DNA from: Methylotuvimicrobium buryatense 5G
GTDB taxonomy: Bacteria; Pseudomonadota; Gammaproteobacteria; Methylococcales; Methylomonadaceae
NCBI RefSeq assembly: GCF_000341735.1
Contig: NZ_KB455575.1
Location: 3,971,317-4,005,503 of the forward strand
Reading direction: 5' to 3'
Length of the DNA: 34,187 nt
In this document: piece after piece, positions 9,892-24,660 of the stretch
How positions within the stretch are numbered: position 1 is the first letter of the stretch
Layout: the number at the start of each line of letters is the position of its first letter
Made by a program: the position numbers and the translations under genes
The notes under the pieces: generated by a model
Told to the model about the DNA's origin: nothing
Seen by the model: only the letters and a program-made list of their open reading frames with translations
The model's database searches: none

Positions 9892-10851
9892 ATGTATAAA
9901 ACAATAGCAGTCTCTATGTTTGCCGGATTGATGGCAATTTCCATGCTTGCTGGAGCCGAGACGGGGTCTGTTCATTCGATCACACTGAAAGCGGTGGCTC
10001 TGGACTCCGGTCAATTAGCCTATCAAATGGTCAAGCACAAGATTAAAAGCCCTTCCGGTAAAGTCGAAGACATCACGAAACGTTACAGTCAGGAGGCATC
10101 GATACCGGGGCCGGCTATCGTCATGACCGAAGGCGATAAAGCGGAAGTTACCTTGGAACACGGCATCAAGGGCTCTAACGATCCGGTTAGTATTCACGTT
10201 CATGGCGTACATTACAAAATCGATAGTGACGGAACCATGAAAATACTCAATCACGTCAATGACCAAGCCGCCTTTCCCGGCAAACCTTACACCTATAAAT
10301 GGACGGCTGCAGCCGGCACCGCCGGTGCTTGGCCTTATCATGATCATACTTTCGGCAATCCCATGCTAGGTGCCGAGGATAAAGGTTTATACGGAACTTT
10401 GATTATCAATCCGAAAAGCGGCAAGGTACCGGCTCTGATCGACGGCAAAGTCCAAAACGTGGCTATAAAAGACATTAAGCGGGAATTTATTTTGTGGATG
10501 AATGAAACCACGTTCTGGGGCATGGAAGTCAATAATATCGTGAATCGTCAGGTACCGCTTTGGACTAACCCCACTCTTGGCGCTCGTGAGAACGATCTGG
10601 TTCGTTTTCACGTCATCGGTATCGGCACAGGTTTTCATACCTTTCATCTTCATGCCCATCGCTGGATTCAACCCGGCACGACACATATCGTCGATACCTT
10701 CAATATCGGGCCGATTCAACGCGAATCGTTCGTAGTCAAGGCCGGCGAAGGCGTCGGTCCGGGCATGTGGCATTATCACTGCCATGTATTACAACACATG
10801 CAGAGCGGCATGATGGGAGCATTCAAAGTATTCGAATCGGCTCCAAATTAA
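9892..10851 (+). CDS. Two-domain small-laccase-type multicopper oxidase, secreted
   Basis: Periplasmic copper oxidase of 319 aa with an N-terminal signal peptide (MYKTIAVSMFAGLMAISMLAGA). Two cupredoxin domains carry the four histidine motifs of the family: HVHG (His102, His104), YHDH (His150, His152), HTFHLHAH (His249, 252, 254, 256) and HYHCHVLQHMQSGM. In the last, Cys297, His302 and Met307 match the type 1 site spacing (+5, +10) of SLAC-type two-domain laccases, which are trimers with the trinuclear centre between subunits. The reaction would be one-electron oxidation of a substrate coupled to O2 reduction to water; the substrate (phenol, Cu(I), Mn(II) or other) is unknown. GAGG lies upstream at 9880-9883. 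The next gene follows within 37 bp and encodes a copper-site propeller protein, so the two probably act together. Confidence 0.93.
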   Translation: MYKTIAVSMFAGLMAISMLAGAETGSVHSITLKAVALDSGQLAYQMVKHKIKSPSGKVEDITKRYSQEASIPGPAIVMTEGDKAEVTLEHGIKGSNDPVSIHVHGVHYKIDSDGTMKILNHVNDQAAFPGKPYTYKWTAAAGTAGAWPYHDHTFGNPMLGAEDKGLYGTLIINPKSGKVPALIDGKVQNVAIKDIKREFILWMNETTFWGMEVNNIVNRQVPLWTNPTLGARENDLVRFHVIGIGTGFHTFHLHAHRWIQPGTTHIVDTFNIGPIQRESFVVKAGEGVGPGMWHYHCHVLQHMQSGMMGAFKVFESAPN

Positions 10852-10888
10852 TCCGTAAAACAAATACAAAAATTGGAAGGTGAATATC

Positions 10889-12709
10889 ATGAAGAGCTAC
10901 AAAAAAACTTATTTAGCAACGATGGTTGCCGGTATTATCCTGAGTTGGAATGTACAGGCGGCTAAAGCCGATTTGGATGATGCTGTCCTAAGTACGCCGG
11001 GGTTGATGCCATCGGCAACCTTGGAGATGACCGACGAGCCCGGTTTGTGGTTTAAAGATCCGGTCGACGGTGATGCCTTAGTGGTGTTAAAGCCGGGGCA
11101 AGCGGTTCAAATAAAAATGGGCGATACCCGAACGGAACACACCATAACCAGTTTGCTTTGGCCGGCGGGAGCGAAGGATTTTCCGATCGATCAAGACCAA
11201 CCGTCTAACGTGAGTATTACTAAAGCTTTGGACACACCGGGGCTTTATGTCTTTACCTGTAAAGTTCATCCGTATATGTTCGGCGCCGTCGTGGTCGACG
11301 ACCCGGCAACCGAAGGTCTCGATATCGGTTCCGAACTGACATTGGTAACGGGCGTAACAGTCCCGGCCGATAGCGATATTGCCAAGCGTTTGCTGCGTAC
11401 CTTTTTCGTGGTCACTACGCCGGACTTATGGCGCGATTACCGGGAGCCGGAATGGAAAGTGAGTCTTCCGGATATACCCTTGAATATCAAAGGCCAAACC
11501 ATCAGTCTCAGCGCGTTGAGTTTGTCCATGCCTAATAAGTTGTTCAACCCTAAAACGCCCGGAGTCGGCGAGGTTTGGGTGAATACCCAATTCGAAATGA
11601 TCGAAGGGAAAACGAAACCCGGTTCGGCGACGCGTATCGACGCGGCTAACTGGAAATTAGTCAACAAAGTCAAAGGGGTAGAGCAAGACTTGAATCACCC
11701 GCATAATATGTGGCCCGATCAGCGCTATCAATATATTTATCAGACGCAATGGTTCGATAAAAGACTGATGACCTTCGAGCGCGAAAGCGGTAAAGTGACC
11801 AGTAACGTCGAAGTCGGTGAATCGCCATCGCATGTCTTGACACGTCCCGGCGATGATAATCTGTATGTCGCGATCAACAATAGCGAACATGTCGTTAAAA
11901 TGAAAGGCGGTAGCCGCCCCGCGGCAATCAAAAGCATCAGCACCGGGAAAAATAGCGGACCTCATGGGCATTTTATTACCGATGACGGAAAATATATGGT
12001 GACCCCGAATGCCTTGGCAAGTAGCGTGTCGGTCGTCGATCTCGACACCGAAAAAAATACCATGATTCCGACCGGAGGCGTCATTCCGATAGCGGTGTGG
12101 GGAACGCCTGACGGTCAACGTGCCTACGTCGCCAATCTGTTGGGCACGCCGCCGCTGTTAAGCAGTTTGACGGTCATCGATATTCCGGGCAAGAAGAAAT
12201 TGTCCGACATCGACCTGGCCGCCGATTACGATCCGATATCGGGAAAAATCAGCGGCGAGGCATACGGGTTGTTGCCGATACAAACGCCGGTTAGTCCTGA
12301 CGGTAAGTATGTAGTGACAGCGAATACCTTGAGCATGAGCATCACGATTGTCGATACCGCAACCAATAAAGTCGTCAAAAGCTTGCCTTGCGAGGCGGGA
12401 TGTCATGGCGTTCATTTCGGCATGAAAAAAGGCGGCGGGTACTATGCTTATGTGGCCAGCAAGTTCGCTAATAATCTGTTGGTTGTGGATATGGATAAGC
12501 TTGAGGTGGCCGGCAGTATTTTATTGGCCGATGACAAAGATAGCAGCATAAAAGCCCATAACGGCATGGGCGGGCAGGGCGTGTTGCCGTTGCCGTTGGT
12601 TGAACACGGCTATTTGGCGCAAACCTTGAAATTAAGCGGAAAAAAAGAGTTGAGTCCGCAAGTGGAAGGCTGGTTGAAGCAATTGACCAAGGAACAAAAA
12701 GGGATTTGA
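10889..12709 (+). CDS. Secreted cupredoxin / NosZ-like beta-propeller protein
   Basis: A 606-aa periplasmic protein; ATG 10889 is preferred over GTG 10880 because GGAAGG (10875-10880) is correctly spaced and a signal peptide follows (YLATMVAGIILSWNVQA). Residues about 35-145 form a type 1 cupredoxin domain with likely ligands His84 (TEHTI), Cys124, His127 and Met130 (CKVHPYM). From about 255 a beta-propeller follows with YVTN/NosZ-like blades (DDGKYMVTPNALASSVSVVD; PDGKYVVTANTLSMSITIVD). Blade starts bear histidines: HPHNMW (270, 272), PSHV, GPHGHF (359, 361), CHGVHF (506, 509), KAHNG. HPH followed by a DQRYQYIY strand recalls the nitrous oxide reductase CuZ propeller, where HHPH occurs, but there is no binuclear CuA domain and several CuZ ligands seem absent. 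It follows the laccase gene at 37 bp and is surely cotranscribed. Likely an electron-transfer or substrate-binding partner; the reaction is unknown. Confidence 0.8.
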   Translation: MKSYKKTYLATMVAGIILSWNVQAAKADLDDAVLSTPGLMPSATLEMTDEPGLWFKDPVDGDALVVLKPGQAVQIKMGDTRTEHTITSLLWPAGAKDFPIDQDQPSNVSITKALDTPGLYVFTCKVHPYMFGAVVVDDPATEGLDIGSELTLVTGVTVPADSDIAKRLLRTFFVVTTPDLWRDYREPEWKVSLPDIPLNIKGQTISLSALSLSMPNKLFNPKTPGVGEVWVNTQFEMIEGKTKPGSATRIDAANWKLVNKVKGVEQDLNHPHNMWPDQRYQYIYQTQWFDKRLMTFERESGKVTSNVEVGESPSHVLTRPGDDNLYVAINNSEHVVKMKGGSRPAAIKSISTGKNSGPHGHFITDDGKYMVTPNALASSVSVVDLDTEKNTMIPTGGVIPIAVWGTPDGQRAYVANLLGTPPLLSSLTVIDIPGKKKLSDIDLAADYDPISGKISGEAYGLLPIQTPVSPDGKYVVTANTLSMSITIVDTATNKVVKSLPCEAGCHGVHFGMKKGGGYYAYVASKFANNLLVVDMDKLEVAGSILLADDKDSSIKAHNGMGGQGVLPLPLVEHGYLAQTLKLSGKKELSPQVEGWLKQLTKEQKGI

Positions 12710-12935: not shown

Positions 12936-13135
12936 CTCTTTCCCAAGCTCCAGCTTGGGAAAGACACACCGGAAGCTCCAGCTTCTTGAGACCGACACAA
13001 CCTCCGCGCATTCTCAATCACCCCCGACTCGCTCGCTCGTTCAATCTTTCTTGATTATCGGGAAGCTAGAGCTTCCTGAACAGGTTACCCAAGCTGGAGC
13101 TTGGGTAACAGCATATTTTAGTTTTTGCGACTACG
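12936..13135. repeat. Palindrome-rich repeat family E, copy 1
   Basis: About 200 bp built of short perfect palindromes: CCCAAGCTCCAGCTTGGG near 12952-12969, GGAAGCTCCAGCTTC near 12971, GGAAGCTAGAGCTTCC near 13061-13076 and ACCCAAGCTGGAGCTTGGGT near 13088-13107, with a conserved spacer around CTCGCTCGTTCAATCTTTCTTG. An inverted copy lies at 22415-22595. Open frames across it are translations of the repeat. It is followed by a CTTGCTAATCAGG end (13155-13193) like that at 9180-9192. Together these fill the gap between the copper operon and fadE. Confidence 0.85.
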
Positions 13136-13196
13136 ACTAACCCCAGCTTGGACACTTGGCTTCGGCAAGCTGAAGCATCTTGCTAATCAGGTGAAG

Positions 13197-15500
13197 TTAA
13201 GTACCACCGCTCAATTGATCAGGCGCGAAATCGTCGACCGCGATCGCTTTCAGTTTGGCTTGCTCGGCTTTTTCGAGTAATGCATATTCGTCCTTGTCGA
13301 TCAATTCCGATGCCAAAGCCTGCTGCAGTAGGGATGACGGCATTCCTTTGGGCAACGCTCCTTGTTTTTGCGCGGCGCGGATTTTTGCCTCGGCCGGTGC
13401 GGCCTCGAGTACTGCCTTGAAGGCCGTCTCGATGCGGCCGGTAGGATCGTCCGGGTCGGTGTTGATATAAATACCGTCGGTTAAACGTTCGCGCGCAGGG
13501 TTGTCGCTCAACAGCAGTTTTGCGAGAGGGCCTGTCAAGGTATCGCGCGGCGGCGCGCAGGGACTTCCGAGCGGATACAACAGGGCACGCAGCAAGCCGG
13601 CCGAAAGTGCCGCCGGCAGTAGCCGAAGTGCTTCCGATAACGATTGTTGGGCATGATACAGGCTGTCTTGGCAGGCCCAATGCAACAGCGGCAGGTCGTC
13701 CGAGGGCGCGCCTTGATTGTCGAAATGTTTGAGTACGCAGGAACACAAGTATAAGTGGCTCAGCACGTCGGCCAGCCGCCCGGAAATGCGTTCCTTGCGT
13801 TTGAGTCGGCCGCCCAGCGTCAGCAGCGCGACATCGGCGGCCAGCGCAAAGCCTGTGCTAAGCCGCGTCAATTGCCGGTAATAACGCTTCGTATGCCGGT
13901 TACCGGGCGCGGCGGTCAGTCGCGAACCGCCAACGCCGAACCAGAGCCCTCTAAGGATGTTCCTTAGAAAAAAACGGATATGCCGCCACACTACCGAGTC
14001 GAATTCACGCAAGGCTTGGGCCGTATCGGTTCGATTCAATGATTGTATTTCTTGCTGCACGAAGGGATGGCAGCGCACCGAACCTTGGCCGAAAATCATC
14101 ATTGTGCGAGTTAGAATGTTCGCGCCCTCGACCGTGATGCCGACCGGGACGACTTGATACAAACGGCCAATTGCGTTGGAAGGCCCCAGACAAATGCCCG
14201 AACCGCCTTGAATATCCATGCCGTCGTTGACGATCCGCCGCATGCCTTCGGTGAGTTGGTATTTCAATATCGCCGAGATCACCGCCGGTTTTTCGCCGGC
14301 ATCGAGCGCCGCGCAGGTTACTTGGCGAGCGGCGTCCATCAGATAGGCGCTGCCGGCCATGCGCGCCAGCACCTCTTCAATGCCTTCGAAGGCTCCGATC
14401 GGCAGATTGAACTGGTGCCTGATCCGCGCATAGGCGCCGGTGTTGCGGCAGATGAATTTGGCCGCGCCGACGCTCAGCGCCGGCAGCGAAATCGCGCGGC
14501 CGGTGGCGAGGCATTGCATCAACATTTTCCAGCCTTGACCGGCTTGTGCCGCGCCGCCGATGATCCAGTCGAGCGGAATGAAAACATCCTTGCCCCAGTT
14601 AGGGCCGTTCTGGAAGGCCGAATCGAGCGGAAAGTGGCGGCGGCCGATCGAAATACCCGGCGTATCGGTCGGAATTAGCGCGACGGTAATGCCGATGTCT
14701 TCGGTTTCGCCCAACAGCCGGTCGGGATCGTAAAGCTTGAACGCCAATCCCAGAACCGTGGCGACCGGGCCTAGCGTAATATAACGCTTCTCCCAATTGA
14801 GCCGTATGCCCAAAACTTGTTCATTGCCTTCGAACGCGCCGTAACAGACGATGCCGGTATCGGGCATCGCGCCGGCATCGCTGCCGGCCAGCGGGCCGGT
14901 TAGCGCGAATGCCGGTATTTCGAGGCCGTCGGCTAAACGCGGCAGATAATGATTCTTTTGCTGTTCGGTGCCGTAGGCCAGCAATAATTTGGCCGGTCCC
15001 AATGAATTCGGGACCATGACCGTGACTGCGGCGGTCGTGCTGCGGCTGGCGAGTTTCATGACGATTTGCGAATGCGCGAAATCGGAAAACTCCAGACCGC
15101 CGTAGCGTTTCGGTATGATGATGCCGCAAAATTTATGTTGTTTGATATAGTCCCAGACTTCCTTCGGTAAGTCTCGGCGCTTGAAGGTGATGTCCCAGTC
15201 GTCGAGCATCGCGCACAGGGTTTCCACAGTTCCGTCGATAAAGGCGCGTTCCTCGTCGCTCAGACGCGCCGCAGGCAGCGCCGCGATTTTGGCCCAGTCC
15301 GGCCGGCCCGTGAACAGTTCGGCGTCCCACCAGGTATTGCCTGCTTCGAGCGCTTCGCGTTCGGTTTGCGACATCGGCGGCAGATTGCGGCGCATGACCT
15401 TGAACAGCGGCCGGGTCAGTAGACTGCGGCGTATCGGAGCATAGGCAACGAGTCCGGCTAGGATAAGCCCGCTCGATACGGCGATAATGAATTCGGTCAT
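13197..15500 (-). CDS. fadE: Acyl-CoA dehydrogenase, FadE type
   Basis: FAD enzyme catalysing the first step of fatty-acid beta-oxidation, acyl-CoA to trans-2-enoyl-CoA. At 767 aa it is of the long FadE class (the E. coli protein is about 814), not the 380-aa class. An N-terminal hydrophobic helix (residues 4-21) suggests membrane association. Family features: PLFKVMRRNLPPMSQTERE (31-49), the flavin/substrate segment TGPLAGSDAGAMPDTG at 201 onward, and GGSGICLGPSNAIGRLYQ with VEGANILTRTMMIFGQG later. The start is ATG 15500 with AGGA upstream. It is the last gene of the acyltransferase-fadA-fadN-fadE order but is separated from fadN by 254 bp containing a family A repeat, so it may be expressed separately. 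A relic of another fadE 3' end lies downstream. Confidence 0.93.
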   Translation of the reverse strand: MTEFIIAVSSGLILAGLVAYAPIRRSLLTRPLFKVMRRNLPPMSQTEREALEAGNTWWDAELFTGRPDWAKIAALPAARLSDEERAFIDGTVETLCAMLDDWDITFKRRDLPKEVWDYIKQHKFCGIIIPKRYGGLEFSDFAHSQIVMKLASRSTTAAVTVMVPNSLGPAKLLLAYGTEQQKNHYLPRLADGLEIPAFALTGPLAGSDAGAMPDTGIVCYGAFEGNEQVLGIRLNWEKRYITLGPVATVLGLAFKLYDPDRLLGETEDIGITVALIPTDTPGISIGRRHFPLDSAFQNGPNWGKDVFIPLDWIIGGAAQAGQGWKMLMQCLATGRAISLPALSVGAAKFICRNTGAYARIRHQFNLPIGAFEGIEEVLARMAGSAYLMDAARQVTCAALDAGEKPAVISAILKYQLTEGMRRIVNDGMDIQGGSGICLGPSNAIGRLYQVVPVGITVEGANILTRTMMIFGQGSVRCHPFVQQEIQSLNRTDTAQALREFDSVVWRHIRFFLRNILRGLWFGVGGSRLTAAPGNRHTKRYYRQLTRLSTGFALAADVALLTLGGRLKRKERISGRLADVLSHLYLCSCVLKHFDNQGAPSDDLPLLHWACQDSLYHAQQSLSEALRLLPAALSAGLLRALLYPLGSPCAPPRDTLTGPLAKLLLSDNPARERLTDGIYINTDPDDPTGRIETAFKAVLEAAPAEAKIRAAQKQGALPKGMPSSLLQQALASELIDKDEYALLEKAEQAKLKAIAVDDFAPDQLSGGT

Positions 15501-15595
15501 GGCTTAATTCCTGTTGCTGTGTCAGTTCGTAGGTTTGGGTTCTTTATCTAATTTTTCGATATGCAAAACTCCGTTCTGGCAATGCCGGTTCCGGA

Positions 15596-15681
15596 GAGGG
15601 TGCGGTTGCTCGATCGACAGCCGCCGTCGAGCCTACATGGACGTATTCACGGCGTCCTGTCGGGCGAGTGACCGCACCCTC
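15596..15681 (+). repeat. Dispersed palindromic repeat family A, copy 2, in the fadN-fadE gap
   Basis: An 86-bp shorter version of the element at 4575, beginning GAGGGTGCGGTTGCTCGATC and ending CGCACCCTC, lacking the internal GGCGGCAGGG hairpin. Similarity to other copies extends outside the terminal repeats: the left flank (TTTATCTAATTTTTCGATAT, 15542-15561) matches the right flank of the 27261 copy, and the right flank (CTTTCATTTGCCGGGGCGAT, 15693-15712) matches that of the 24339 copy. The full unit may therefore be about 190 bp. Confidence 0.85.
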
Positions 15682-15754
15682 CGTCACCAGACTACTTTCA
15701 TTTGCCGGGGCGATGGCCAGGCCTTCATGAACGTTACGTTGCTCGATTGCCCCG

Positions 15755-18067
15755 TCAGTTTCTCAACGGCTTGCCGGTTTTTAGCATGTGTTCGAGCCTT
15801 GCTGCAGTGCCGGGTTGCTTGACCAGGTGCAAAAAGGCTTGTCGTTCCAGGTTCAATATGTCTTGTTCGCTAAGCGGATCGAGGGAGTCGGTGTCTCCGC
15901 CGCTCAATACGAAAGCCAGTTGGCCGGCGATTTCCCGGTCGTAGGCGGTTGCTTTGCCCGAGAGCGCTAAGTTGCGCACGGCTATGTCAAGCGCCGCGCG
16001 GGCCGAAGCGCCCGGTAAATAATAAACATAAGGTTCCGGCGGTCGGTAGTCGGCGATCATTGTCAGGACGCGCGCTTTTGCGTCGGCCAGCAGACGGTCC
16101 TTGTTCATTGTGATGCCGTCGTGTTCGGATAAATAGAGTAATTCCTTCGCCAGCAAGGCCGATTTGGACGTTTTGGCGAGCGCGATGGTCTCGAAGGCTT
16201 GCGAAATCGCCGGCATCGGTCCGCTCGGGCGGTTAGGCAAGCTAAGCCATCGGCGCAATAATTCCTTACAGCCGCCCCAGCCCGGCACCAGACCGACTCC
16301 GGTTTCGACGAGGCCGGTATACAGTTCGGCATGGGCTTGCACCGCATCGCAATGCAGCAGAATTTCGCAGCCGCCGCCCAGCGCCAAACCGGACGGCGCG
16401 CCGACGACCGGGAAAGGCGCGTATTTCAAGGCTTGATAAGTTTGTTGCCCGAGCTCGACGATTCGGGCGACGGTGTCCCAATCTTGCCGCAGCAATGCCG
16501 GGGCCAGCAGAGTTAGATTGGCCCCGGCCGAAAAATGCTCGGCTTCGTTATGGATGACCATGCCATCGAAATTGTCACGGACGACGCCGATACTTTGTTG
16601 TGTCAGGCTCAGGCTGTCCGGGTCCAAAGTATTCATTTTGCTATGAAATTCTAGGCAAACGATGCCGTCGCCGATGTCCCACAAGCTGGCCGATGTATTT
16701 TCGAGCAAGGGCGCAGCACGCCGTTTGATGTCGCCGAGCGACAGCATGCCTTCGGGACGGTGAATCGGCCGATAGCGTCGCTCTTCGTCCTTACACTCCA
16801 GGACGCCTTGCTCGGTGCGATACAGGCTTTGCCGGTCCGCGAGCAGATAGGGAATCGGTTGGTGTTTTTTTTGAAGCCGCTCGACGAACCAGTCGACGCC
16901 GAGACGATCGAGTAGTTCGAATGGACCGTAACGCCAGTTGTAGCCGAGGCGCATCGCAGTATCGATCGCAAGCGGATCGTCGGCGATTTCCGGAATCAAG
17001 CTAGCCGCATAGCTTAGCGTGTCCGACCAGACTCGCCAGGCATAGCGATTGAGCGTTTCGCCGCCGGATAAAAAATTTTTCAAATCTTCGGGTCTGTGAC
17101 TGACGCCGTCGATGCGAAATTTTTCACTGACACGATAGTCGCCGGTTTGAAGGTCGACCGCTTCCTTGATTTTGGTGTCGGCATCGGGCTTGAGACGATA
17201 AAATCCGCCGAGTCCCTTGCGACCTGTGTAGCCTTTTTCGATCATGGCGCGTAGCAACGGCGGCACGGCGCCGATCGCCCGCAAACGGTCCTTGGCCGGC
17301 AGGCTTTGCTTGAAGCCGCTCAGAACATGCGGCATCAAGTCCAGGCCGACCAGGTCCAGCAAGCCGAACACGCCGGTTTTCGGAATGCCGAACAGCGCCA
17401 TCGCGGCATCGCATTCTTCGACGGTCAAGTTATTCGCGATCGCTTCAAGCAATGCCGTTTGTATCCAAAAGGTACCGATCCGATTCGCGATGAAGCCCGG
17501 CGTGTCCTTGCAAGTGACGCAGCCTTTACCGAGGCGCAGGTCTGCGAACATCGCGACCGCATCGAACAAATCGGGTGCGATGTCGGGCGGCGCGATCAGT
17601 TCCAGTAGGCGCATGTAGCGCGGCGGATTGAAAAAGTGCGTGATCATGAAGCGCCGCTTGAAGCTTTCGGATTGTTGCAAGGTCAGCATCTTCAACGGCA
17701 GTGTCGAGGTGTTCGACGATATCAGCGCATCCGGTCGGCAGACCGCTTCCAGCTGTCGATAAAGGATACGTTTGATGTCCGGATCTTCGAGCACGGCTTC
17801 GACGATCCAATCGGCCTCGGCCAGTCGGCCTAAATCGTCCTCGATATTGCCGGGCGAGATCAGCCGAACGTTGTTCGGGTGCATCAGCGGCGAGGGTTGG
17901 GCGGCAAGCATTTTGGCGATCGCTTGCTCGGCTATTTGATTACGGTTCGTTGCGTTATCCGGGACGATGTCCAATAAGACCACCGGAATACCCGCATTGG
18001 CGATATGCGCGGCGATGCCGGCACCCATTACGCCGGCGCCGACGACCGCTGCTCGTTCGATATTCAT
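15755..18067 (-). CDS. 3-hydroxyacyl-CoA dehydrogenase / enoyl-CoA hydratase, FadN-type
   Basis: Bifunctional beta-oxidation enzyme, 770 aa, hydrating trans-2-enoyl-CoA and oxidising the 3-hydroxyacyl-CoA with NAD. The order is dehydrogenase first, hydratase last, as in Bacillus FadN and opposite to E. coli FadB. The dehydrogenase half shows GAGVMGAG at 10-17, SSNTSTLPL and HFFNPPRYMRL; the hydratase half (about 500-640) shows GLALGGGCE and GLVETGVGLVPGWGG, keeping both expected glutamates. ATG 18067 is chosen because the Rossmann strand starts immediately and the codon overlaps the fadA stop (ATGA); upstream residues in the longer open frame are unrelated. Translational coupling with the thiolase is likely. 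Confidence 0.92.
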   Translation of the reverse strand: MNIERAAVVGAGVMGAGIAAHIANAGIPVVLLDIVPDNATNRNQIAEQAIAKMLAAQPSPLMHPNNVRLISPGNIEDDLGRLAEADWIVEAVLEDPDIKRILYRQLEAVCRPDALISSNTSTLPLKMLTLQQSESFKRRFMITHFFNPPRYMRLLELIAPPDIAPDLFDAVAMFADLRLGKGCVTCKDTPGFIANRIGTFWIQTALLEAIANNLTVEECDAAMALFGIPKTGVFGLLDLVGLDLMPHVLSGFKQSLPAKDRLRAIGAVPPLLRAMIEKGYTGRKGLGGFYRLKPDADTKIKEAVDLQTGDYRVSEKFRIDGVSHRPEDLKNFLSGGETLNRYAWRVWSDTLSYAASLIPEIADDPLAIDTAMRLGYNWRYGPFELLDRLGVDWFVERLQKKHQPIPYLLADRQSLYRTEQGVLECKDEERRYRPIHRPEGMLSLGDIKRRAAPLLENTSASLWDIGDGIVCLEFHSKMNTLDPDSLSLTQQSIGVVRDNFDGMVIHNEAEHFSAGANLTLLAPALLRQDWDTVARIVELGQQTYQALKYAPFPVVGAPSGLALGGGCEILLHCDAVQAHAELYTGLVETGVGLVPGWGGCKELLRRWLSLPNRPSGPMPAISQAFETIALAKTSKSALLAKELLYLSEHDGITMNKDRLLADAKARVLTMIADYRPPEPYVYYLPGASARAALDIAVRNLALSGKATAYDREIAGQLAFVLSGGDTDSLDPLSEQDILNLERQAFLHLVKQPGTAARLEHMLKTGKPLRN

Positions 18068-19206
18068 GATGCTGCCTCCAGAATGGTTGCAATGCCTTGG
18101 CCGCCGCCGATGCACTGTGTGGCCAGCGCATAGCGCTTACGCTCTCGGTGCAGTAGGCTGGCCGCCTTGCCGGTGATGCGCGCGCCGGTCGCGCCGAGAG
18201 GATGGCCTAGCGCGATCGCGCCGCCGTCCAGGTTGAGTTTTTCGATAGGGATAGGCAATTCTTGTAATACGGCCAAAGCCTGCGCGGCGAAGGCTTCGTT
18301 CAATTCGACCAGATCGATGTCTTCCAGCGACAAACCGGCTCTCTGCAAGGCCTTGTGCGTCGCGGCAACCGGGCCGATACCCATGATTTCCGGCTGGCAG
18401 GCGGATACCGCGATCGATTTGATACGGGCCAGTTTCGGCAGTCCGTGCGCGTCGGCATAGGCTTCGCTGCATACCAATACCGCCGCGGCGCCGTCGGTCA
18501 GCGGCGACGACGTCGCGGCCGTGACGCTGCCGTTTTGCAGAAATGCCGGCTTGAGCTCGGCCAGACCTTCCGCAGTCGAATCGGGGCGCGGACAGCCGTC
18601 TTGATCGATGCGATCGCCTCGGTGCGTTAGAATAGGCACGATCTCATCGGCAAAGTCGCCGTTTTGTCGGGCGTGCTGCGTTTTGCGCTGGCTGGTCAAC
18701 GCGAAATTTTCTTGATCCCGGCGGGCTATGGAATAGCGGCGCGCTAGGTTTTCGGCGGTCTCGCCCATGCTCATGTAGGCCTCCGGGTGATTTTTATAAA
18801 GCTCCGGGTGCGGCAAGGTATTGAATCCGCCCATCGGCACGCGGCTCATCGATTCGACGCCGGCGCAAATGAAAACTTCGCCGGCGTTCATTTGAATCGC
18901 GCCGGCCGCGATATGAATCGCTTGCATCGACGAGCCGCAGAAACGGTTGACGGTCATGCCCGCGACTGAAATCGGCAATTCCGCCAGATGCACGACGAGG
19001 CGCGCGAGATTGAGGCCTTGCTCGCCTTCCGGAAAGGCGCAGCCGAGAATCAAGTCTTCGATGGCGTTCGGATCGACGCCGCACTTGTCGATCAGGGCCT
19101 TGACCACTTGCGCGGCCAAGTCGTCGGGTCTGACGTGGGCTAACTCGCCTTTGCCCGCCGGCGTGAACGGCGATCTGGCATATCCTGCGATGACTACATT
19201 ATTCAT
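18064..19206 (-). CDS. fadA: Acetyl-CoA acyltransferase (thiolase), FadA-type
   Basis: Thiolase that cleaves 3-ketoacyl-CoA with CoA to acetyl-CoA and a shortened acyl-CoA. It has 380 aa, the usual length. The active-site cysteine is Cys90 (NRFCGSSMQAI), with His335 in GGAIALGHPLGATGAR and Cys365 in CIGGGQG completing the triad. ATG 19206 overlaps the stop of the upstream acyltransferase-hydrolase gene by an ATGA junction, and its own stop overlaps the start of the downstream dehydrogenase-hydratase gene in the same way. The longer frame upstream of this ATG lies inside the previous gene and is rejected. Expected to form a complex or channel with the FadN-type protein. Confidence 0.94.
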   Translation of the reverse strand: MNNVVIAGYARSPFTPAGKGELAHVRPDDLAAQVVKALIDKCGVDPNAIEDLILGCAFPEGEQGLNLARLVVHLAELPISVAGMTVNRFCGSSMQAIHIAAGAIQMNAGEVFICAGVESMSRVPMGGFNTLPHPELYKNHPEAYMSMGETAENLARRYSIARRDQENFALTSQRKTQHARQNGDFADEIVPILTHRGDRIDQDGCPRPDSTAEGLAELKPAFLQNGSVTAATSSPLTDGAAAVLVCSEAYADAHGLPKLARIKSIAVSACQPEIMGIGPVAATHKALQRAGLSLEDIDLVELNEAFAAQALAVLQELPIPIEKLNLDGGAIALGHPLGATGARITGKAASLLHRERKRYALATQCIGGGQGIATILEAAS

Positions 19207-21542
19207 GATGCTGTCTCCTCTTCGGGAATGGCTTGCGTTATGGGGCGGCTGGTGTCCTCGGTTTGTTGCAGCGAGCTTAAAAAATCGTCGATCACCGACC
19301 AAGTCTCGCCGATGTTTTCCATCAGAATGCCGTGCCGGTCGGCATCGATCGAATGTAAATATTTTCTTGCCGCGCCTAATTTGGCGAATACGGCTTCGGC
19401 GCTTTCCGGCGCGACGATTGGGTCCCGGTTGGCATAGAGTAATAAAGTCGGCGTTACGATACCGGGCAATAATTCGTCAAGATGCTGAATCAGTCTGCGT
19501 AATTCGAATAGCGCCCGGATCGGCGTATTGCAGTAATTGATGTCGGGATGTTCCGGCGTGTTGTCGATGAACGGTTTGACGCCCTCGAAAGAAGACAGCC
19601 AGCGTACCAGGCTATTGGTGTTGTGCAGTAAAGACACCAGCATAAAAGACGGATTCAAGAATTTGACAGGCACTGAAACCGCGACAACACCGGCGATTTC
19701 GGGACGGTTTTCCGCCGCGAGCTTGAGCGCCAAAGCGCCGCCGGTCGAAAAGCCGATCAAGACGATTTTTCCGCAGTGCGCTTTGAGGATAGTAAAGCCT
19801 TTGCGCACGCTGTCGAACCATTGCTCATAACTCAAATCTCTCAAGGCATTGGGTGACGTGCCGTGGCCCTTCAACCGAATCCCAAGCACCGTGAAGCCTT
19901 GGTGCGCCAGCTTGCGGCCGTAATCGCGAAGTTCCGCGGGGCTGGCCAACAGACCGTGTATCAACAGAATACCGATGCCGTTGGTTCGGGCCGGCTTCAT
20001 CAAGAATGGAGACGGGTCGGCTATGGCGCTTTCGTGTTGCTTGATTGCGCCGTTTTGCAGCGTGCTGTAGGTCTGCTGTTCGTAGGCCAGCGCGATCAGT
20101 TCGTCGTCGAAATGCCAGGCCGCCAGTTGTTCGGGAGAGATCTTGGCATAGGCTTGGTCGGCGGCCGAAAGCGTATCGCGCACGGTGCTAAGCGGCGCCG
20201 CTTCGTTATTGTAGACCGCGACCGGATTTTCCAGACGGATTTGATCGAAGTCGTGGTCTTCGCACAATTTCGGCAAGAAATGGTAGCATTCGTCTTCTTC
20301 GGCAATGAGTTGCGATTCTTTGGCGATGCATATGAAGTGCTCGAAGCGGTCGTTGACGCAATGGGTCAGATCGCTGTACTCGTCTGGGTTCAAGAGGCTC
20401 CGATGTAAATGGATGACGGGATTTTTTTGCAGATTTTTTATCGCGATATACAGTACGGTATAAAATCGGCACTTTTCGATATGCTTGAGTCCGGCGCCGA
20501 TTTTGCTCATGATCAGCGTCGAGGCCAGATGGCTGAGGTTCACCGTAACATTGGCATAGATCGCTTTCATGTATTGATTGCGCGAACAGCTTGCATTTTT
20601 GACGAATAGATAGCCGAGCAGGCGTTCTTTCCAAGTTCTCGGCGCGCTTGTCAAGTTGAACGCATCGTCCGGATCGCGTATGTCCGGCGCCGTTTTGTCC
20701 ATGACCCAATGCGTGCGCCAATCCCAGACGCAACAAGGATTGACCGGCTCGCCCATGCGGATGTCCATGTCGGTGTCCTTGAGCAAGATATTACCTTCGA
20801 TCAAGAGCTCTTCGGTTTGCCGAAGGCTCATCGTGTCCGAAAACAATTCGACGCTTTTGAACAATAGGTTTTCGGAGTTGCGAATCGGATAAAATGTGAT
20901 GTTGGCCGGTACGATCAAGGTCGGTTTTAAGGCGGCCGCCATTAATTGATCCAAGCTGTCGAATTCGAGCAGGGACTGCCAGTGCAGTAAGCGCTCTTTG
21001 TCTTTTGTTTTGAAGGCATGGCGAATCGCCGACTTCAATGCTTCTACCCCTTGTCCTAACACGGCAGGACCGGTGTGATGCTTACGTCGAAGTCCGTTCA
21101 TGCGCGAATAAATACTATATTCGCCTTTTTTGTCGATGACGCGCCGGTCCTTGACCATGCCGCCTTCGGGAAAAATAATGACTTTACGTCCGCGCAGGAT
21201 TTGGCCGGCCAAGATAGCGAACAAACGGGGGTGATCGTGCGGAAATACGCCGACATGCTTCAAATAATTCGACAGTACATTGTCTTCCTTGAAGAATTCG
21301 CCCGATGCGATCGAGCAGCTGTAAGCGCCGGTTTGTTCGAAAAATAGAAATTGAGGAATGAAGGTTTCGAAGCGGGAAAAATGGTTGAACAGGAAAATAT
21401 CGCCTTGTAATACCTGGTTGTCGGCGAACAGTTCGAATTTGACGCTCAATAAGTTTTTGACGGCCCTGAACAACTTGACCGAGCGAATATAGAGCGCGGT
21501 GTCGATGTCGTGCCAGTTTTCGGGGTAATCGGCATACTTCAT
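19203..21542 (-). CDS. Acyltransferase fused to alpha/beta-hydrolase
   Basis: A 779-aa two-domain protein. The N-terminal half (about 40-330) is a PlsC/LPLAT-like acyltransferase: NHFSRFE places the catalytic His54 in an HX4E version of the usual HX4D motif, and IIFPEGGMVKD (FPEGG 124-128) is the acyl-acceptor motif. A helical middle region follows (about 340-520). The C-terminal part (about 545-770) is an alpha/beta-hydrolase of the esterase/lysophospholipase kind: LIHGLLASP, nucleophile Ser599 in GFSTGG, Asp in ANRDPIV and His in ADRHGIL. ATG 21542 is chosen because family sequence starts there with GGGAG upstream. It is first in the operon and overlaps fadA by ATGA. A cycle of acyl removal, re-acylation and beta-oxidation of membrane or storage lipids is the inferred role. 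The fusion itself is clear; substrates are not. Confidence 0.85.
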   Translation of the reverse strand: MKYADYPENWHDIDTALYIRSVKLFRAVKNLLSVKFELFADNQVLQGDIFLFNHFSRFETFIPQFLFFEQTGAYSCSIASGEFFKEDNVLSNYLKHVGVFPHDHPRLFAILAGQILRGRKVIIFPEGGMVKDRRVIDKKGEYSIYSRMNGLRRKHHTGPAVLGQGVEALKSAIRHAFKTKDKERLLHWQSLLEFDSLDQLMAAALKPTLIVPANITFYPIRNSENLLFKSVELFSDTMSLRQTEELLIEGNILLKDTDMDIRMGEPVNPCCVWDWRTHWVMDKTAPDIRDPDDAFNLTSAPRTWKERLLGYLFVKNASCSRNQYMKAIYANVTVNLSHLASTLIMSKIGAGLKHIEKCRFYTVLYIAIKNLQKNPVIHLHRSLLNPDEYSDLTHCVNDRFEHFICIAKESQLIAEEDECYHFLPKLCEDHDFDQIRLENPVAVYNNEAAPLSTVRDTLSAADQAYAKISPEQLAAWHFDDELIALAYEQQTYSTLQNGAIKQHESAIADPSPFLMKPARTNGIGILLIHGLLASPAELRDYGRKLAHQGFTVLGIRLKGHGTSPNALRDLSYEQWFDSVRKGFTILKAHCGKIVLIGFSTGGALALKLAAENRPEIAGVVAVSVPVKFLNPSFMLVSLLHNTNSLVRWLSSFEGVKPFIDNTPEHPDINYCNTPIRALFELRRLIQHLDELLPGIVTPTLLLYANRDPIVAPESAEAVFAKLGAARKYLHSIDADRHGILMENIGETWSVIDDFLSSLQQTEDTSRPITQAIPEEETAS

Positions 21543-21808
21543 GGTGCGGTGACTCCCTGGCGTCTTTTGAAGGCCGCCGTTTGAGGTCTTGCATAAAACC
21601 GGTCGAACCGATCGATGTCGAATGGTAGCTTTATGTAAAGACTTTCTACTTTTGCATCGGTTCCCTAAGATTGAACGTATATGCCTGTCGTAGATCAAAA
21701 CGCGGGGCTGGGTGAATACGTTCGTATAGGTTCTTGCCAGCACCTATGCCGGAAAAGTTTTTAGGAAAATATGCACAAAATAACTTCTATAATTTGTAGC
21801 TGTTCTTT

Positions 21809-22312
21809 ATGAACCGGAGCATGCAAGAAAAAATCGAACTCGAACACGAGGCGGCCAAGCTGTTCATGCGGCTTTACGAACAAAAAACGGGCATTCCGAT
21901 GCGGCATATTTGGCATAACGAGCCGAAAAAGCCGGATGTATCGTGTTACCTAGGTGATCGGCGCTTGGATTTGGAAATTGCGCATTTGTACGGTAGTGAA
22001 GAAGAAGCCCAACTGATTTTGGGTCGCAAAGTCAGTATCCGGACGCTAGAGGCGTTGCATCGCTTGATTACCGTTCCGGTCGGCGGGCGCCTGTTGAATG
22101 CATTGAATGCGATTTTAGCCAGCAAGGCCGAAAAGTCCTATCACAGCGACCGGGTTTGGCTGGTTTTGCGTAACGCCAATCCGCTTTGGAGCCGGGAGGA
22201 ACTGGCAGATAATTTGCACAGAGTGACGCTGCCGGAGTCTCATCCGTTCGAGCAGATTTGGGTCGTCGGAGACATGGAAGGAAAGTCCGGTATTTTGCGG
22301 CTGTTTCCTTGA
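21809..22312 (+). CDS. Uncharacterised 167-aa protein, possible PD-(D/E)XK-like fold
   Basis: Soluble protein that I do not recognise by name. It has a charged N-terminal helix (EKIELEHEAAKLFMRLYEQKTG), then KPDVSCYLGDRRLDLEIAHLYG (about 51-72), then a helical segment, a hydrophobic strand VWLVLRNANPLW and a final strand FEQIWVVGDM before FP at the C-terminus. The PD...LDLEIA pattern followed by alternating strand and helix resembles degenerate restriction-nuclease-like folds, but the catalytic Lys is not evident, so this is only a hint. ATG 21809 has no clear ribosome site; ATG 21821 is possible. Divergent from the lipid operon with a 266-bp shared gap. Confidence 0.65.
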   Translation: MNRSMQEKIELEHEAAKLFMRLYEQKTGIPMRHIWHNEPKKPDVSCYLGDRRLDLEIAHLYGSEEEAQLILGRKVSIRTLEALHRLITVPVGGRLLNALNAILASKAEKSYHSDRVWLVLRNANPLWSREELADNLHRVTLPESHPFEQIWVVGDMEGKSGILRLFP

Positions 22313-22331
22313 GCTATCCTGATACCCTGTG

Positions 22332-22411
22332 GCCCGGATGCCCTGTGGGAGCGATCCCCTGATCGCGATTTTGAGGTCGAGACGGTTGGATAACAATAAA
22401 TGGTATCGAGG
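22332..22411 (+). repeat. Dispersed repeat family H, copy 1
   Basis: About 80 bp with CTGTGGGAGCGATCCC, a GATCGCGATTT segment and the end ACAATAAATGGTATCGAGG. A second copy in the same orientation is at 28852-28932. The end overlaps the left arm of the 21-bp inverted repeat around the family E copy. Confidence 0.75.
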
Positions 22412-22667
22412 CCGCAAAAACTAAAATATGCTGTTACCCAAGCTCCAGCTTGGGTAACCTGTTCAGGAAGCTCTAGCTTCCCGACAATCAAGAAAGATTG
22501 AACGAGCGAGTCGGGGTTGTTTGAGAATGTACGGAGGTTGTGTCGGTCCCAGGAAGCTGGAGCTTCCGGGGTGTCTTTCCCAAGCTGGAGCTCTCATCGT
22601 TATACGTAAGTCAAAAATTACCCTTTTGCAACCTTAACCAATGAGACCTCGATACCATTTATTGTTA
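22391..22667. mobile_element. MITE-like unit with perfect 21-bp terminal inverted repeats
   Basis: The 21 bases at 22391-22411 (starting TAACAATAAATGGTATCG) are the exact reverse complement of 22647-22667. Between them lies the inverted family E copy (22415-22595) and about 50 bp more. Total length is 277 bp with no coding capacity, the form of a non-autonomous mobile element or a palindromic repeat that trapped another. No clear target-site duplication was seen. Confidence 0.6.
22415..22595. repeat. Palindrome-rich repeat family E, copy 2 (inverted)
   Basis: Reverse-complement copy of the 12936-13135 element, with the same order of AAGCTCCAGCTT, GAAGCTCTAGCTTC and GGAAGCTGGAGCTTCC palindromes and the spacer CAATCAAGAAAGATTGAACG. 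Together with copy 1 it brackets the lipid operon in inverted orientation, about 9.3 kb apart. Confidence 0.85.
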
Positions 22668-22724
22668 CTTATAGAGCCCGTGATTAATTAAGCTACATTC
22701 GAAGCGTATTTAGTATCTTCCAGT

Positions 22725-22864
22725 CCCTAGCAGGACGGGGTTTGCAACCCCGTCCTAAACGTTTTGACTTTGGCCGAAGTCAGCCGAAATGTTTAGGGCA
22801 ATCCGAAACGTTGGGGACGGGTTAAATAACCCGTCCCGCAGAAGTGGCTACGACTGGCCACTGC
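22725..22864 (+). repeat. Dispersed repeat family B, copy 2
   Basis: Near-identical to 9008-9147: CCCTAGCAGGACGGGG start, GACGGGG/CCCCGTC and GACGGG/CCCGTC hairpins, and the GCAGAAGTGGCTACGACTGG end. Separated by 52 bp of unrelated sequence from copy 3. Confidence 0.85.
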
Positions 22865-22916
22865 ATAGGTCGCACCGTTTAAGACTGAGCCGTTGGTACC
22901 TGCGACTCACACATAT

Positions 22917-23032
22917 CCCTAGCAGGACGGGGTTTGCAGCCCCGTCCTAAACATTTTGACTTTGGCCGAAGTTAGCCGAAATGTTTAGGGCAATCCGAAA
23001 CGTTGGGGACGGGTTAAATAACCCGCCCCGCG
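22917..23032 (+). repeat. Dispersed repeat family B, copy 3
   Basis: Third copy, same orientation as copy 2, truncated at the right: after ACCCGCCCCG it runs into the pilU 3' end 12 bp further on. Its hairpins sit immediately downstream of pilU and could act as that gene's transcript end. Confidence 0.85.
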
Positions 23033-23044
23033 CGGGAAAAAGGT

Positions 23045-24208
23045 TTAGGTTTGCCCCTCTTCCTCCTGATCCTTTTCAATCGCCTCGAGCGAGAATCTTG
23101 AAGTCAAGCCGCCAGTCGATTTAGCGATCGCTTCGGTCGCCGATCCCTTGCCTTCGCTGAGGTTGATTTTCAATTTCAAGTTATTCGGCGAGTCGGAGTT
23201 TTGCAAGGCTTCTTCGAGCGAAATTTTGCCTTCCTTGAAAAGTTTGAGCAAATGGCTGTCGAAGGTTTGCATGCCGATGTTTTCGGATTTTTCCATCGCT
23301 TCCTTGATCGTATGAATTTCGCCTTTATGAATCAAGTCTTTGACCAATTGCGTCCCCAGCAAAATTTCGATCGCCGCGACCCGTTTTCCGTCCACGGTAG
23401 GAACAAGTCTTTGGGAAACAAAGGCCTTCAAATTCAGCGATAGATCCAGCAATAATTGGTTACGCCGCTCTTCCGGGAAGAAATTGATGATACGGTCCAG
23501 GGCCTGATTGGCGTTGTTGGCATGCAGCGTCGACAAGCATAAATGCCCAGTTTCGGCGAAGGCGAGTGCATGTTCCATCGTTTCTTGAGAGCGGATTTCG
23601 CCGATCAGAATCACGTCCGGTGCCTGGCGTAGCGTATTTTTCAACGCGTCCTCGTAACTGAGCGTATCGACGCCGACTTCGCGTTGATTGACCAGGCAGC
23701 GTTTGTGCGGATGAAGATATTCGATCGGGTCTTCGATCGTGATGATGTGCCCCGACGAATTGCTGTTGCGGTGATCGATCAGTGCGGCCAGGGAGGTCGA
23801 CTTGCCGGAGCCGGTGCCGCCGACGAATAGAATCAAACCGCGCTTTTCCATGATGACTTTTTTCAGCACTTCGGGCAGGCCTAATTGATCGGCATTCGGA
23901 ATATCGACCTTGATGTTTCGAATGACCAAGGCCAGGTTGTTGCGCTGTTTGAAAATATTGACCCGGAATCGGCCGATGCCCTGTTCGGTGATCGCCAGAT
24001 TCATTTCCGGGACGTGTTCGAAGTCTTTTTGCTGATCGGCATCCATTAAACTGTAAGCGATAGCCTTGATGCGTTCGCCGGTCAGTTTTTCGCTTTCGAG
24101 CGGTTTCAATGCGCCTTGAAATTTTGCCGCGGCCGGCGCGCCGACCGTTAAGTAAAGATCGGAACCGTCTTTGCTGACCAAAATTCTTAGATAATCTTTA
24201 AAATCCAT
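23045..24208 (-). CDS. pilU: Type IV pilus retraction-associated ATPase PilU
   Basis: Hexameric secretion-type ATPase of the PilT/PilU group, 387 aa, at the inner-membrane base of type IV pili, assisting retraction and twitching. Motifs: Walker A GGTGSGKST (130-138), IEDPIEYLH (Asp box), Walker B DVILIGEIR, the His box HLCLSTLHANN, and the MNLAITEQGIGRFRVN N-domain. PilU is preferred over PilT because of the C-terminal extension after about residue 345 (SPNNLKLKINLSEG onward) and the length close to known PilU (about 380). The usual pilT partner is not adjacent: the gene stands alone, with family B repeats downstream and repeat-filled sequence upstream. Confidence 0.9.
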   Translation of the reverse strand: MDFKDYLRILVSKDGSDLYLTVGAPAAAKFQGALKPLESEKLTGERIKAIAYSLMDADQQKDFEHVPEMNLAITEQGIGRFRVNIFKQRNNLALVIRNIKVDIPNADQLGLPEVLKKVIMEKRGLILFVGGTGSGKSTSLAALIDHRNSNSSGHIITIEDPIEYLHPHKRCLVNQREVGVDTLSYEDALKNTLRQAPDVILIGEIRSQETMEHALAFAETGHLCLSTLHANNANQALDRIINFFPEERRNQLLLDLSLNLKAFVSQRLVPTVDGKRVAAIEILLGTQLVKDLIHKGEIHTIKEAMEKSENIGMQTFDSHLLKLFKEGKISLEEALQNSDSPNNLKLKINLSEGKGSATEAIAKSTGGLTSRFSLEAIEKDQEEEGQT

Positions 24209-24228
24209 AATGAATCCATTAGTTTACA

Positions 24229-24262
24229 TGTAGGATGGGTAGAGCGGAGCGAAACCCATCGG
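24229..24262 (+). repeat. Short GTAGGATGGGT repeat (family C), single arm
   Basis: TGTAGGATGGGTAGAGCGGA followed by GCGAAACCCATCGG is one arm of the repeat found complete at 29046, 30364 and 33934. Here it stands alone just upstream of pilU, next to family A copy 3. Confidence 0.75.
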
Positions 24263-24338
24263 GGAGCGCCACGAAAGCCACTGTAACGCTTATGAAGGCC
24301 TGGCAATCGCCCCGGTAAATGAAAGTGAGAGGGTGAGG

Positions 24339-24492
24339 GAGGACGCGGTCACTCGCCCGACAGGACGCCGTGAATACGTCCATGTAGGCTCGACGGCGGA
24401 ATCTGATTGCCATGGATGGCATGAATGCAGATTTTGCAGGAGCAAAAATCTGCCCTGCCGCCGACGCCTGTCGATCGAGCAACCGCACCCTC
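24339..24492 (-). repeat. Dispersed palindromic repeat family A, copy 3 (inverted, with insert)
   Basis: Reverse orientation relative to the first two copies; ends GAGGACGCGGTCACTCGCC and CGAGCAACCGCACCCTC. It carries about 50 extra bases (24400-24450, including GATTGCCATGGATGGCATG) between the two halves of the internal hairpin, making it 154 bp. Minus-strand frames through it read AYMDVFTASCRAS and are not genes. The rest of the 452-bp gap between pilU and the PP-loop gene contains a family C arm and the promoter region at 24567-24622. Confidence 0.85.
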
Positions 24493-24606
24493 CTTGGAAC
24501 CGGCATTGTTTTTCATATCGAAAAATTAGAGCCACGGTGCCAAAAATTTGATGGCTAGCTATTCTAGGTGATAATCACCGAAGTTGAACCCTGTTTAGCC
24601 AAGAAA

Positions 24607-24622: not shown

Positions 24623-24660
24623 ATTTTTTAAACAAGCATTTTAAACACGATAATAGCGTT

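What the first reader, a model, noticed from the sequence alone, without database searches (positions are those of the whole stretch)
9892..12709. Two-domain laccase paired with a cupredoxin/NosZ-like propeller protein
The two genes are 37 bp apart and both products are secreted. The first has a complete SLAC-type copper set (Cys297, His302, Met307 plus trinuclear-site histidines). The second joins a type 1 cupredoxin (His84, Cys124, His127, Met130) to a propeller whose blade starts carry HPH, GPHGH and CHGVH motifs similar to those around the CuZ site of nitrous oxide reductase. The domain order is reversed relative to NosZ, where the copper domain is C-terminal and binuclear. An intermolecular electron path from propeller to cupredoxin to laccase to O2 would be a copper redox system of undescribed function, perhaps copper(I), nitrogen-oxide or metal oxidation.
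Basis: partly seen in the sequence, partly recalled or inferred. Interest (0 to 1): 0.75.

Follow-up and report, generated by a model that had tools for sequence, protein, structure and literature searches.

The report
Copper oxidase with a histidine-lined propeller
Some methane- and ammonia-oxidizing microbes carry a conserved set of secreted copper proteins, a small oxygen-reducing oxidase joined to a copper electron carrier and a histidine-lined propeller, which probably burn a reactive by-product with oxygen, though the substrate is not yet known.

Summary
9892-10851 encodes a complete type B two-domain multicopper oxidase (MCO). 10880-12709 (likely start ATG 10889) encodes a type 1 cupredoxin plus a seven-bladed propeller (pLDDT 88.5). 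In the host's order 19 of 101 genomes have both, adjacent in all 19.

Fetched relatives are mainly ammonia and methane oxidizers. In most ammonia-oxidizer loci the MCO is fused to the cupredoxin-propeller. Five propeller histidines are near-invariant (65-66 of 66 rows): H275, H318, H362, H364, H509.

Strongest new result: in 34 of 34 loci with a separate MCO beside the fused one, copper ligands are complementary. One keeps only domain-1 trinuclear histidines, the other only domain 2 plus T1, so an O2-reducing site needs both. This supports one path: propeller, cupredoxin, T1, trinuclear site, O2.

It is not a NosZ (far below cut-off, no CuA, at best five of seven CuZ-type positions) nor MCO4/Nmar_1354 (about 444 aa). 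Substrate is inferred: a nitrogen intermediate is favoured (NO-reductase and NnrS genes follow the pair on Methylocystis plasmid-type loci); Cu(I) is the main rival.

The parts
9892..10851 (+). two-domain multicopper oxidase (type B, SLAC-like), 319 aa, signal-like N-terminus by eye
   Evidence: complete ligand set
10195..10347 (+). domain-1 trinuclear-site histidines H102, H104 (10195-10203) and H150, H152 (10339-10347)
   Evidence: same four His in 21 of 21 unfused single laccases of relatives
10636..10812 (+). domain-2 ligands: T1 H249, C297, H302, M307; trinuclear H252, H254, H296, H298
   Evidence: second alignment
10880..12709 (+). cupredoxin-propeller protein with signal-like N-terminus, 609 aa from GTG, 606 aa from the likelier ATG at 10889
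   Evidence: AF2 pLDDT 88.5, pTM 0.87
11057..11305 (+). type 1 cupredoxin domain, about residues 60-142; ligands H87 (11138), C127 (11258), H130 (11267), M133 (11276)
   Evidence: weak pseudoazurin matches; ligand conservation
11552..12592 (+). seven-bladed YVTN/lactonase-type propeller, about residues 225-571
   Evidence: blade count is mine
11702..11704 (+). H275 (HPHN motif), conserved 65 of 66
   Evidence: strand 274-279
11831..11833 (+). H318 (SPSH motif), conserved 66 of 66
   Evidence: strand 316-321
11963..11971 (+). H362 and H364 (GPHGH motif), conserved 66 and 65 of 66
   Evidence: between short strand bits at 361 and 365-366
12404..12406 (+). H509 (CHGV motif), conserved 66 of 66, next to C504 (65) and C508 (59)
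   Evidence: strand 508-516

Best explanation
The two genes encode one periplasmic copper oxidase. Steps: (1) a small reductant binds in the mouth of the propeller, at a copper site made by five histidines (H275, H318, H362, H364, H509), and is oxidized; (2) electrons pass to the T1 copper of the N-terminal cupredoxin; (3) from there to the T1 copper of the two-domain MCO; (4) the trinuclear copper site reduces O2 to water. The reductant is most likely a reactive nitrogen intermediate (hydroxylamine, nitroxyl or NO) arising from ammonia oxidation by ammonia or methane monooxygenase, so the system would protect the cell or clear the intermediate. Shown by sequence: domains, ligands, gene pairing, fusion, complementary half-MCOs. 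Predicted: propeller fold and strand positions. Inferred: that the histidines face inward and bind copper, the order of electron transfer, and the substrate.
For: Pairing: of 101 order relatives 21 have the propeller protein, 20 the laccase, 19 both (Fisher 2.5e-17), adjacent on one strand in all 19 (coordinates). Fusion: in ammonia oxidizers MCO, cupredoxin and propeller share one frame (47 fused frames of 766-1127 codons stop to stop, the shortest cut by contig ends). Complementarity: 34 of 34 two-MCO loci, repeated with another alignment (34 of 34), although the A proteins differ down to 36% and the B proteins to 43% identity. In type B enzymes the trinuclear site takes histidines from domain 1 of one subunit and domain 2 of the next (PMC13151041 passages). 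Conservation. Distribution: 63 family loci of 64 fetched; AmoC in 26 of 33 carrier genomes tested. Nitrogen link: (a) in Methylocystis rosea plasmid pGW6_2 and similar loci the pair is followed by folE and nitrogen-oxide genes: a NorB cytochrome-like gene, a COX1-family gene, SirB and NnrS in L040, SirB2 and NnrS in the pGW6_2 table; (b) strong HAO-type cytochrome hits in 17 of 21 carriers against 24 of 80 others in the order; (c) MCOs encoded on plasmid pBSC2-2 of Methylocystis SC2, which also bears norB and nosZ, rise under high ammonium (PMC9600857 passages; not shown to be this family); (d) Nmar_1354, a related archaeal MCO type, makes HNO from hydroxylamine (reported in PMC12448741 passages; original not held).
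Against: No direct evidence for the substrate or for copper in the propeller. Nmar_1354/MCO4 is not the same family: mean MCO4 gene length is 1333 bp (PMC11849493 passages), too short for the propeller. The HAO association is confounded by ancestry (genus level 7 of 9 vs 10 of 33, p 0.019); six genomes with weak hits were dropped from it. AmoC does not discriminate inside the order (20 of 21 carriers, 92 of 101 in all). The set is patchy: 10 of 121 sampled Nitrosopumilaceae match the window protein. Seven of 33 carrier genomes, all MAG records, showed no AmoC, and some of the 26 hits are short fragments. L052, L082 and L093 show no MCO near the propeller gene, and some ammonia-oxidizer genomes hold shorter propeller frames not followed up (G404:C161, G472:C43). 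Heavy-metal efflux genes lie near two Methylocystis loci. Electrons sent to O2 would be wasted energy. Most neighbours give no pathway.
Confidence: 0.44

Rival explanations
1. A cuprous oxidase for copper homeostasis: the propeller histidines bind Cu(I), and the cupredoxin and MCO oxidize it to Cu(II), protecting copper-rich cells or aiding copper uptake.
For: Carriers mostly depend on a copper monooxygenase. MCO4 genes of N. viennensis rise under copper limitation and Cu(I) oxidation was proposed (PMC7785015 passages). In L038 an outer-membrane efflux gene and a HlyD/CusB-type gene lie downstream; CusA/CzcA-type efflux genes lie about 17-18 kb away on both sides in pGW6_2. MCOs such as CueO oxidize Cu(I) (recalled).
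Against: Among 45 picked neighbour proteins of relatives only the L038 efflux genes and a weak, below-cut-off NosD match in L087 point to metals. MCO4 is a different family. The genome-contig scan found the family only in the lineages listed, though that scan reaches close relatives only.
Confidence: 0.22
2. The propeller is a passive scaffold, docking platform or assembly factor; only the MCO and cupredoxin are redox active and the substrate is organic or a metal ion oxidized at T1.
For: YVTN propellers are common binding modules (recalled); the best fold matches are surface-layer, NirF/NirN and lactonase propellers.
Against: Five histidines at blade starts are near-invariant across bacteria and archaea, whereas the non-family propellers aligned from relatives mostly carry other residues there (the second Methylocystis propeller excepted).
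Confidence: 0.2
3. An N2O reductase relative: the histidines form a CuZ-type cluster that reduces N2O, with the cupredoxin as electron donor.
For: Profile alignment to clade III L-NosZ puts H362 on L-NosZ H90 and H509 on H223, with H318 one residue off H36; HPHN of H275 resembles EPHN of H341.
Against: 59.7 bits against a cut-off of 700; the two L-NosZ members score 753 and 786. No CuA domain. Two of seven positions (H180, H283) have no His here. Coupling to an O2-reducing MCO makes a reductase unlikely.
Confidence: 0.06

Closest known systems
Type B two-domain laccases (SLAC family)
   Same: Two domains and full T1 and trinuclear ligand set in methanotrophs
   Different: Paired or fused with a cupredoxin-propeller; in ammonia-oxidizing bacteria and one Nitrososphaeraceae MAG split into two complementary half-enzymes
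Clade III lactonase-type N2O reductase (L-NosZ, NF052460)
   Same: YVTN/lactonase-type propeller with histidines at blade starts and a cupredoxin-type domain in the same chain
   Different: L-NosZ: seven blade-start His (my reading of two sequences) and C-terminal CuA-like motif; here five, N-terminal T1 copper, score far below cut-off
Archaeal MCO4, including Nmar_1354
   Same: Two-domain MCO with an extra blue copper domain (PMC7785015 passages)
   Different: About 444 aa (1333 bp), no room for the propeller; the hemerythrin neighbour reported for Nmar_1354 was not seen in the AOA regions read, by a crude motif scan and Pfam on a few neighbours
Hydrazine synthase beta subunit
   Same: YVTN propeller, sequence similarity E 3.9e-15, fold rank 16
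   Different: Below cut-off (55.8 vs 560 bits); no cupredoxin or MCO partner (recalled for hydrazine synthase)

Membership tests
Type B two-domain MCO | Two cupredoxin domains with T1 ligands in domain 2 only | tested here: met
   H249, C297, H302, M307 in domain 2
Type B two-domain MCO | Four trinuclear His in each domain | tested here: met
   window protein; 21 of 21 unfused single laccases of relatives
Type B two-domain MCO | Homotrimer with interfacial trinuclear site | not testable with these tools
   no oligomer prediction offered; arrangement taken from PMC13151041 passages
L-NosZ (NF052460) | Score over the curated cut-off | tested here: not met
   59.7 of 700 bits
L-NosZ (NF052460) | C-terminal binuclear CuA domain | tested here: not met
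   only an N-terminal T1 cupredoxin; chain ends after the propeller
L-NosZ (NF052460) | Seven CuZ histidines | tested here: not met
   five conserved His, two positions empty; the seven L-NosZ His are my choice among the His shared by two sequences
Archaeal MCO4 / Nmar_1354 | Two-domain MCO plus blue copper domain in about 444 aa | tested here: not met
   family members have an extra propeller of about 350 aa; MCO4 length; Nmar_1354 sequence itself not seen
Hydrazine synthase beta | Score over the curated cut-off | tested here: not met
   55.8 of 560 bits

The most novel reading that the evidence does not exclude
An apparently undescribed class of copper oxidase shared by methane and ammonia oxidizers across two domains of life. 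A five-histidine, CuZ-like propeller site oxidizes a nitrogen intermediate (possibly NO to nitrite, the step for which no enzyme is identified in ammonia-oxidizing bacteria), with electrons passed through two T1 coppers to O2. In ammonia-oxidizing bacteria and some soil archaea the O2-reducing site is assembled from two complementary, individually dead half-oxidases.
Probability: 0.2. Interest if true: 0.9.

Novelty: new variant of a known kind. Interest (0 to 1): 0.73.

Why it matters
Methane and ammonia oxidizers shape the methane, nitrite and nitrous oxide budgets (recalled). How archaea handle hydroxylamine and how ammonia-oxidizing bacteria oxidize NO is unsettled; [quoted passage not shown] A conserved copper oxidase in these organisms is a concrete candidate for such chemistry and can be tested by gene deletion in methanotrophs. 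The complementary half-MCOs are a natural case in which two paralogues lost opposite halves of one active site, which predicts an obligate heteromer.

Tried and rejected
NosZ membership: rejected (cut-off, CuA, missing histidines), although the histidine placement is similar. The L-NosZ E-value alone was discounted because at E 0.001 the model rings in 7 of 14 control genomes (at 1e-60 it rings in none).

Identity with archaeal MCO4/Nmar_1354: first favoured, then rejected on gene length. A PDB detour to find one of its sequences gave nothing usable. The hemerythrin scan was a crude recalled motif that lit up only on most of the fused frames themselves, so it is weak.

Structure of L-NosZ for a blade-by-blade comparison: model too poor (pLDDT 34), not used.

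Neighbours annotated: 20 proteins of the window and 45 picked ones of relatives, not every neighbour. In the window a cation-efflux (CDF) gene lies 13 kb away.

NCBIfam named neither the NorB-like nor the NnrS-like Methylocystis proteins; Pfam did.

The first version of the second-alignment check had wrong column mapping (0 of 34); it was corrected by aligning the window protein itself (34 of 34).
Full report
OBSERVATION. The window lies in a 5.07-Mb genome of two contigs; the nearest named relative fetched is Methylomicrobium sp. wino1. The genes read as described: a 319-aa MCO at 9892-10851 and a 609-aa (606 from the likelier ATG 10889) protein at 10880-12709. The MCO matches Cu-oxidase_3 and Cu-oxidase_2 and two-domain laccases in the PDB. 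The second protein matches YVTN-type propeller models over its C-terminal part and pseudoazurin weakly over its N-terminal part. AlphaFold2 with 36 aligned sequences gave pLDDT 88.5 and pTM 0.87; I count seven blades between about 231 and 571. Foldseek's best PDB matches are the YVTN surface-layer protein, NirF, NirN, lactonases and, at rank 16, hydrazine synthase beta; NosZ is not among the 50 rows shown.

WHO HAS IT. A scan of genome contigs gave 64 loci; 63 are family members, the last is an unrelated propeller at 26% identity. By record title they are gamma- and alphaproteobacterial methanotrophs, Nitrosomonas, Nitrosospira, Nitrosovibrio, Nitrososphaeraceae, Nitrosopumilus, one Methylomirabilis MAG, and a few MAGs labelled Chloroflexi, Chromatiales or Methyloversatilis. 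The scan used peptide patterns from the window protein, so distant members may be missed. AmoC was found in 26 of 33 carrier genomes tested (33 of the 63 loci were given); some hits are short fragments, and the seven misses (L047, L048, L054, L082, L087, L092, L093) are all MAG records. In the order, 21 of 101 genomes have the propeller protein and 20 the laccase, 19 both, adjacent in all 19. Of the exceptions, G025 and G094 have the propeller match at a contig edge, and G079 has a laccase match that stops at residue 291, before the copper motif HCH. AmoC is in 20 of the 21 carriers but in 92 of all 101, so it does not discriminate there. Of Nitrosopumilaceae, 10 of 121 match the window protein at 1e-40 and 14 of 250 match a fused archaeal member at 1e-100. 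Among 72,556 plasmid records the propeller protein is found in two, both Methylocystis rosea and rated mobilizable, with the laccase beside it.

THREE ARCHITECTURES. Methanotrophs have two adjacent genes. Most ammonia-oxidizer loci have MCO, cupredoxin and propeller in one frame; exceptions are L052 (propeller protein alone) and shorter frames in G404 and G472 that I did not follow up. I examined 102 MCO frames of at least 150 codons. In 34 loci a separate MCO (A) lies directly upstream of the fused one (B), the frames being between -45 and 64 bases apart. In 34 of 34, A keeps all four domain-1 trinuclear histidines and has lost the T1 cysteine and the domain-2 histidines (0 of 4 in 33, 1 of 4 in one), while B keeps all four domain-2 histidines and the T1 His-Cys-His and has lost domain 1 (0 of 4 in 13, 1 of 4 in 21). 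A profile-based alignment gave the same count (the earlier attempt had a mapping error). All 21 unfused single laccases are complete. Of 13 single fused frames 11 are complete, L062 is cut by its contig and L080 has lost domain 1 without a visible partner. The 34 are not 34 independent events: in a tree of 41 MCO domains the A forms make one group and the B forms another (the latter with L080), each holding both bacterial and Nitrososphaeraceae sequences. The two archaeal A/B loci (L076, L079) come from one MAG. One old split, later shared between domains, is my inference; what counts is that the pattern holds while A proteins differ down to 36% and B proteins to 43% identity. Because the trinuclear site of type B enzymes is built from domain 1 of one subunit and domain 2 of the next (PMC13151041 passages), A and B should need each other. 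How two kinds of subunit fit a trimer is not known.

PROPELLER HISTIDINES. Of 84 homologous frames I dropped 19 (fragments, among them the Methylomirabilis one, or near copies) and added the window: 66 rows, still with close relatives among them. H275 65, H318 66, H362 66, H364 65, H509 66; C504 65, C508 59. H273 17, H512 10, H337 4, H560 11, H576 19. In the 36-row alignment H318, H362 and H509 are invariant and H275, H364 at least 90%. The three archaeal fused proteins printed keep the same motifs. The five lie on or beside the first strand of blades 2, 3, 4 and 7 (strands; blade numbers mine); by the usual propeller layout that is the innermost strand (recalled, not measured). Non-family propellers aligned by tblastn mostly carry other residues there. 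The exception is a second propeller encoded near the pair in four Methylocystis-type loci (L037, L039, L040, L050), with His at two or three of the aligned positions.

NOSZ COMPARISON. Two true L-NosZ proteins were found among 299 genomes of the phylum (786 and 753 bits). They share seven histidines at blade starts, by my reading, besides other shared His; at 78% identity the two say little about conservation. A CuA-like motif lies at the C-terminal end. Profile alignment (probability 91-92%, E about 1e-6) places H362 on H90, H509 on H223, and H318 next to H36; I467 faces H180, so that His is missing; none matches H283. H275 lies outside the local alignment; its HPHN resembles EPHN of H341, which would match if the ring is closed circularly. 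So five of seven CuZ-type positions are filled at best, two of them by exact alignment. A smaller copper site is plausible but unproven. Since generic propellers also hit the L-NosZ model, descent beyond the propeller fold is not shown.

FUNCTION. Fusion and complementarity make a shared electron path the simplest reading. The nitrogen substrate rests on four leads. (a) In L040, and by protein clustering in L037, L039 and L050, the pair is followed by folE, a COX1-family protein, SirB and NnrS (E 1.3e-111); L040 also has a protein with the NorB cytochrome c-like domain (E 2.1e-72) just before the COX1 one (folE was annotated in L037, the others in L040 only); in pGW6_2 the table shows folE, SirB2 and NnrS. 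NorB is NO reductase and NnrS is linked to NO stress (recalled). (b) HAO-type cytochromes in the order: strong hits (my threshold, set after seeing two classes) in 17 of 21 carriers and 24 of 80 others; with the six weak genomes included 17 of 21 and 30 of 80. The name HAO for this Pfam family is recalled. (c) Plasmid-borne MCOs of Methylocystis SC2 rise under high ammonium (PMC9600857 passages); whether they are this pair was not tested. (d) Nmar_1354 is reported to make HNO from hydroxylamine (PMC12448741 passages); this is analogy only, since MCO4 genes average 1333 bp (PMC11849493 passages). Against it, efflux-type genes lie near two Methylocystis loci, which would fit copper. Regulators differ: a protein cluster found in 24 loci, nearly all AOB, has a LuxR-type response regulator as its one annotated member; in nine Methylocystis-type loci there is an ECF sigma factor cluster (three members annotated), followed in L038 and L040 by a small protein with HX3CX2C, in L040 weakly similar to RsrA (20.3 of 62.5 bits). 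That would fit a response to thiol-reactive species, but is weak evidence.

LITERATURE. I searched open-licence PubMed Central papers only and saw passages of eleven papers, none in full. No listed title or abstract start, and no passage seen, describes an MCO-cupredoxin-propeller protein or complementary half-MCOs; subscription papers and preprints were not searched.

Noticed in passing
L040 4493-5599 (also L037, L039, L050; YncE family protein in L142): Methylocystis loci encode a second YVTN propeller upstream of the ECF sigma gene, with several blade-start histidines at positions like those of the main propeller.
   Followed up: partly
L142 (plasmid pGW6_2 of Methylocystis rosea) 16625-27085: The pair sits on a mobilizable plasmid in a run of second propeller, sigma factor, small protein, MCO, cupredoxin-propeller and folE, with SirB2 and NnrS family genes nearby.
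   Followed up: partly
window 12940-13175: Several copies of a palindromic repeat with AAGCT and AGCTT arms between the propeller gene and the convergent acyl-CoA dehydrogenase gene, seen by eye.
   Followed up: no
window 32560-33167: ParD/ParE-type toxin-antitoxin pair.
   Followed up: no
window 13197-19302: A fatty-acid beta-oxidation set (acyl-CoA dehydrogenase, hydroxyacyl-CoA dehydrogenase/hydratase, thiolase) in a genome that also has AmoC/PmoC.
   Followed up: no
L052 7857-9734: A Nitrososphaera MAG with a stand-alone cupredoxin-propeller gene and no MCO hit in the fetched region; in the tree it groups with a Chloroflexi MAG protein (L093).
   Followed up: partly
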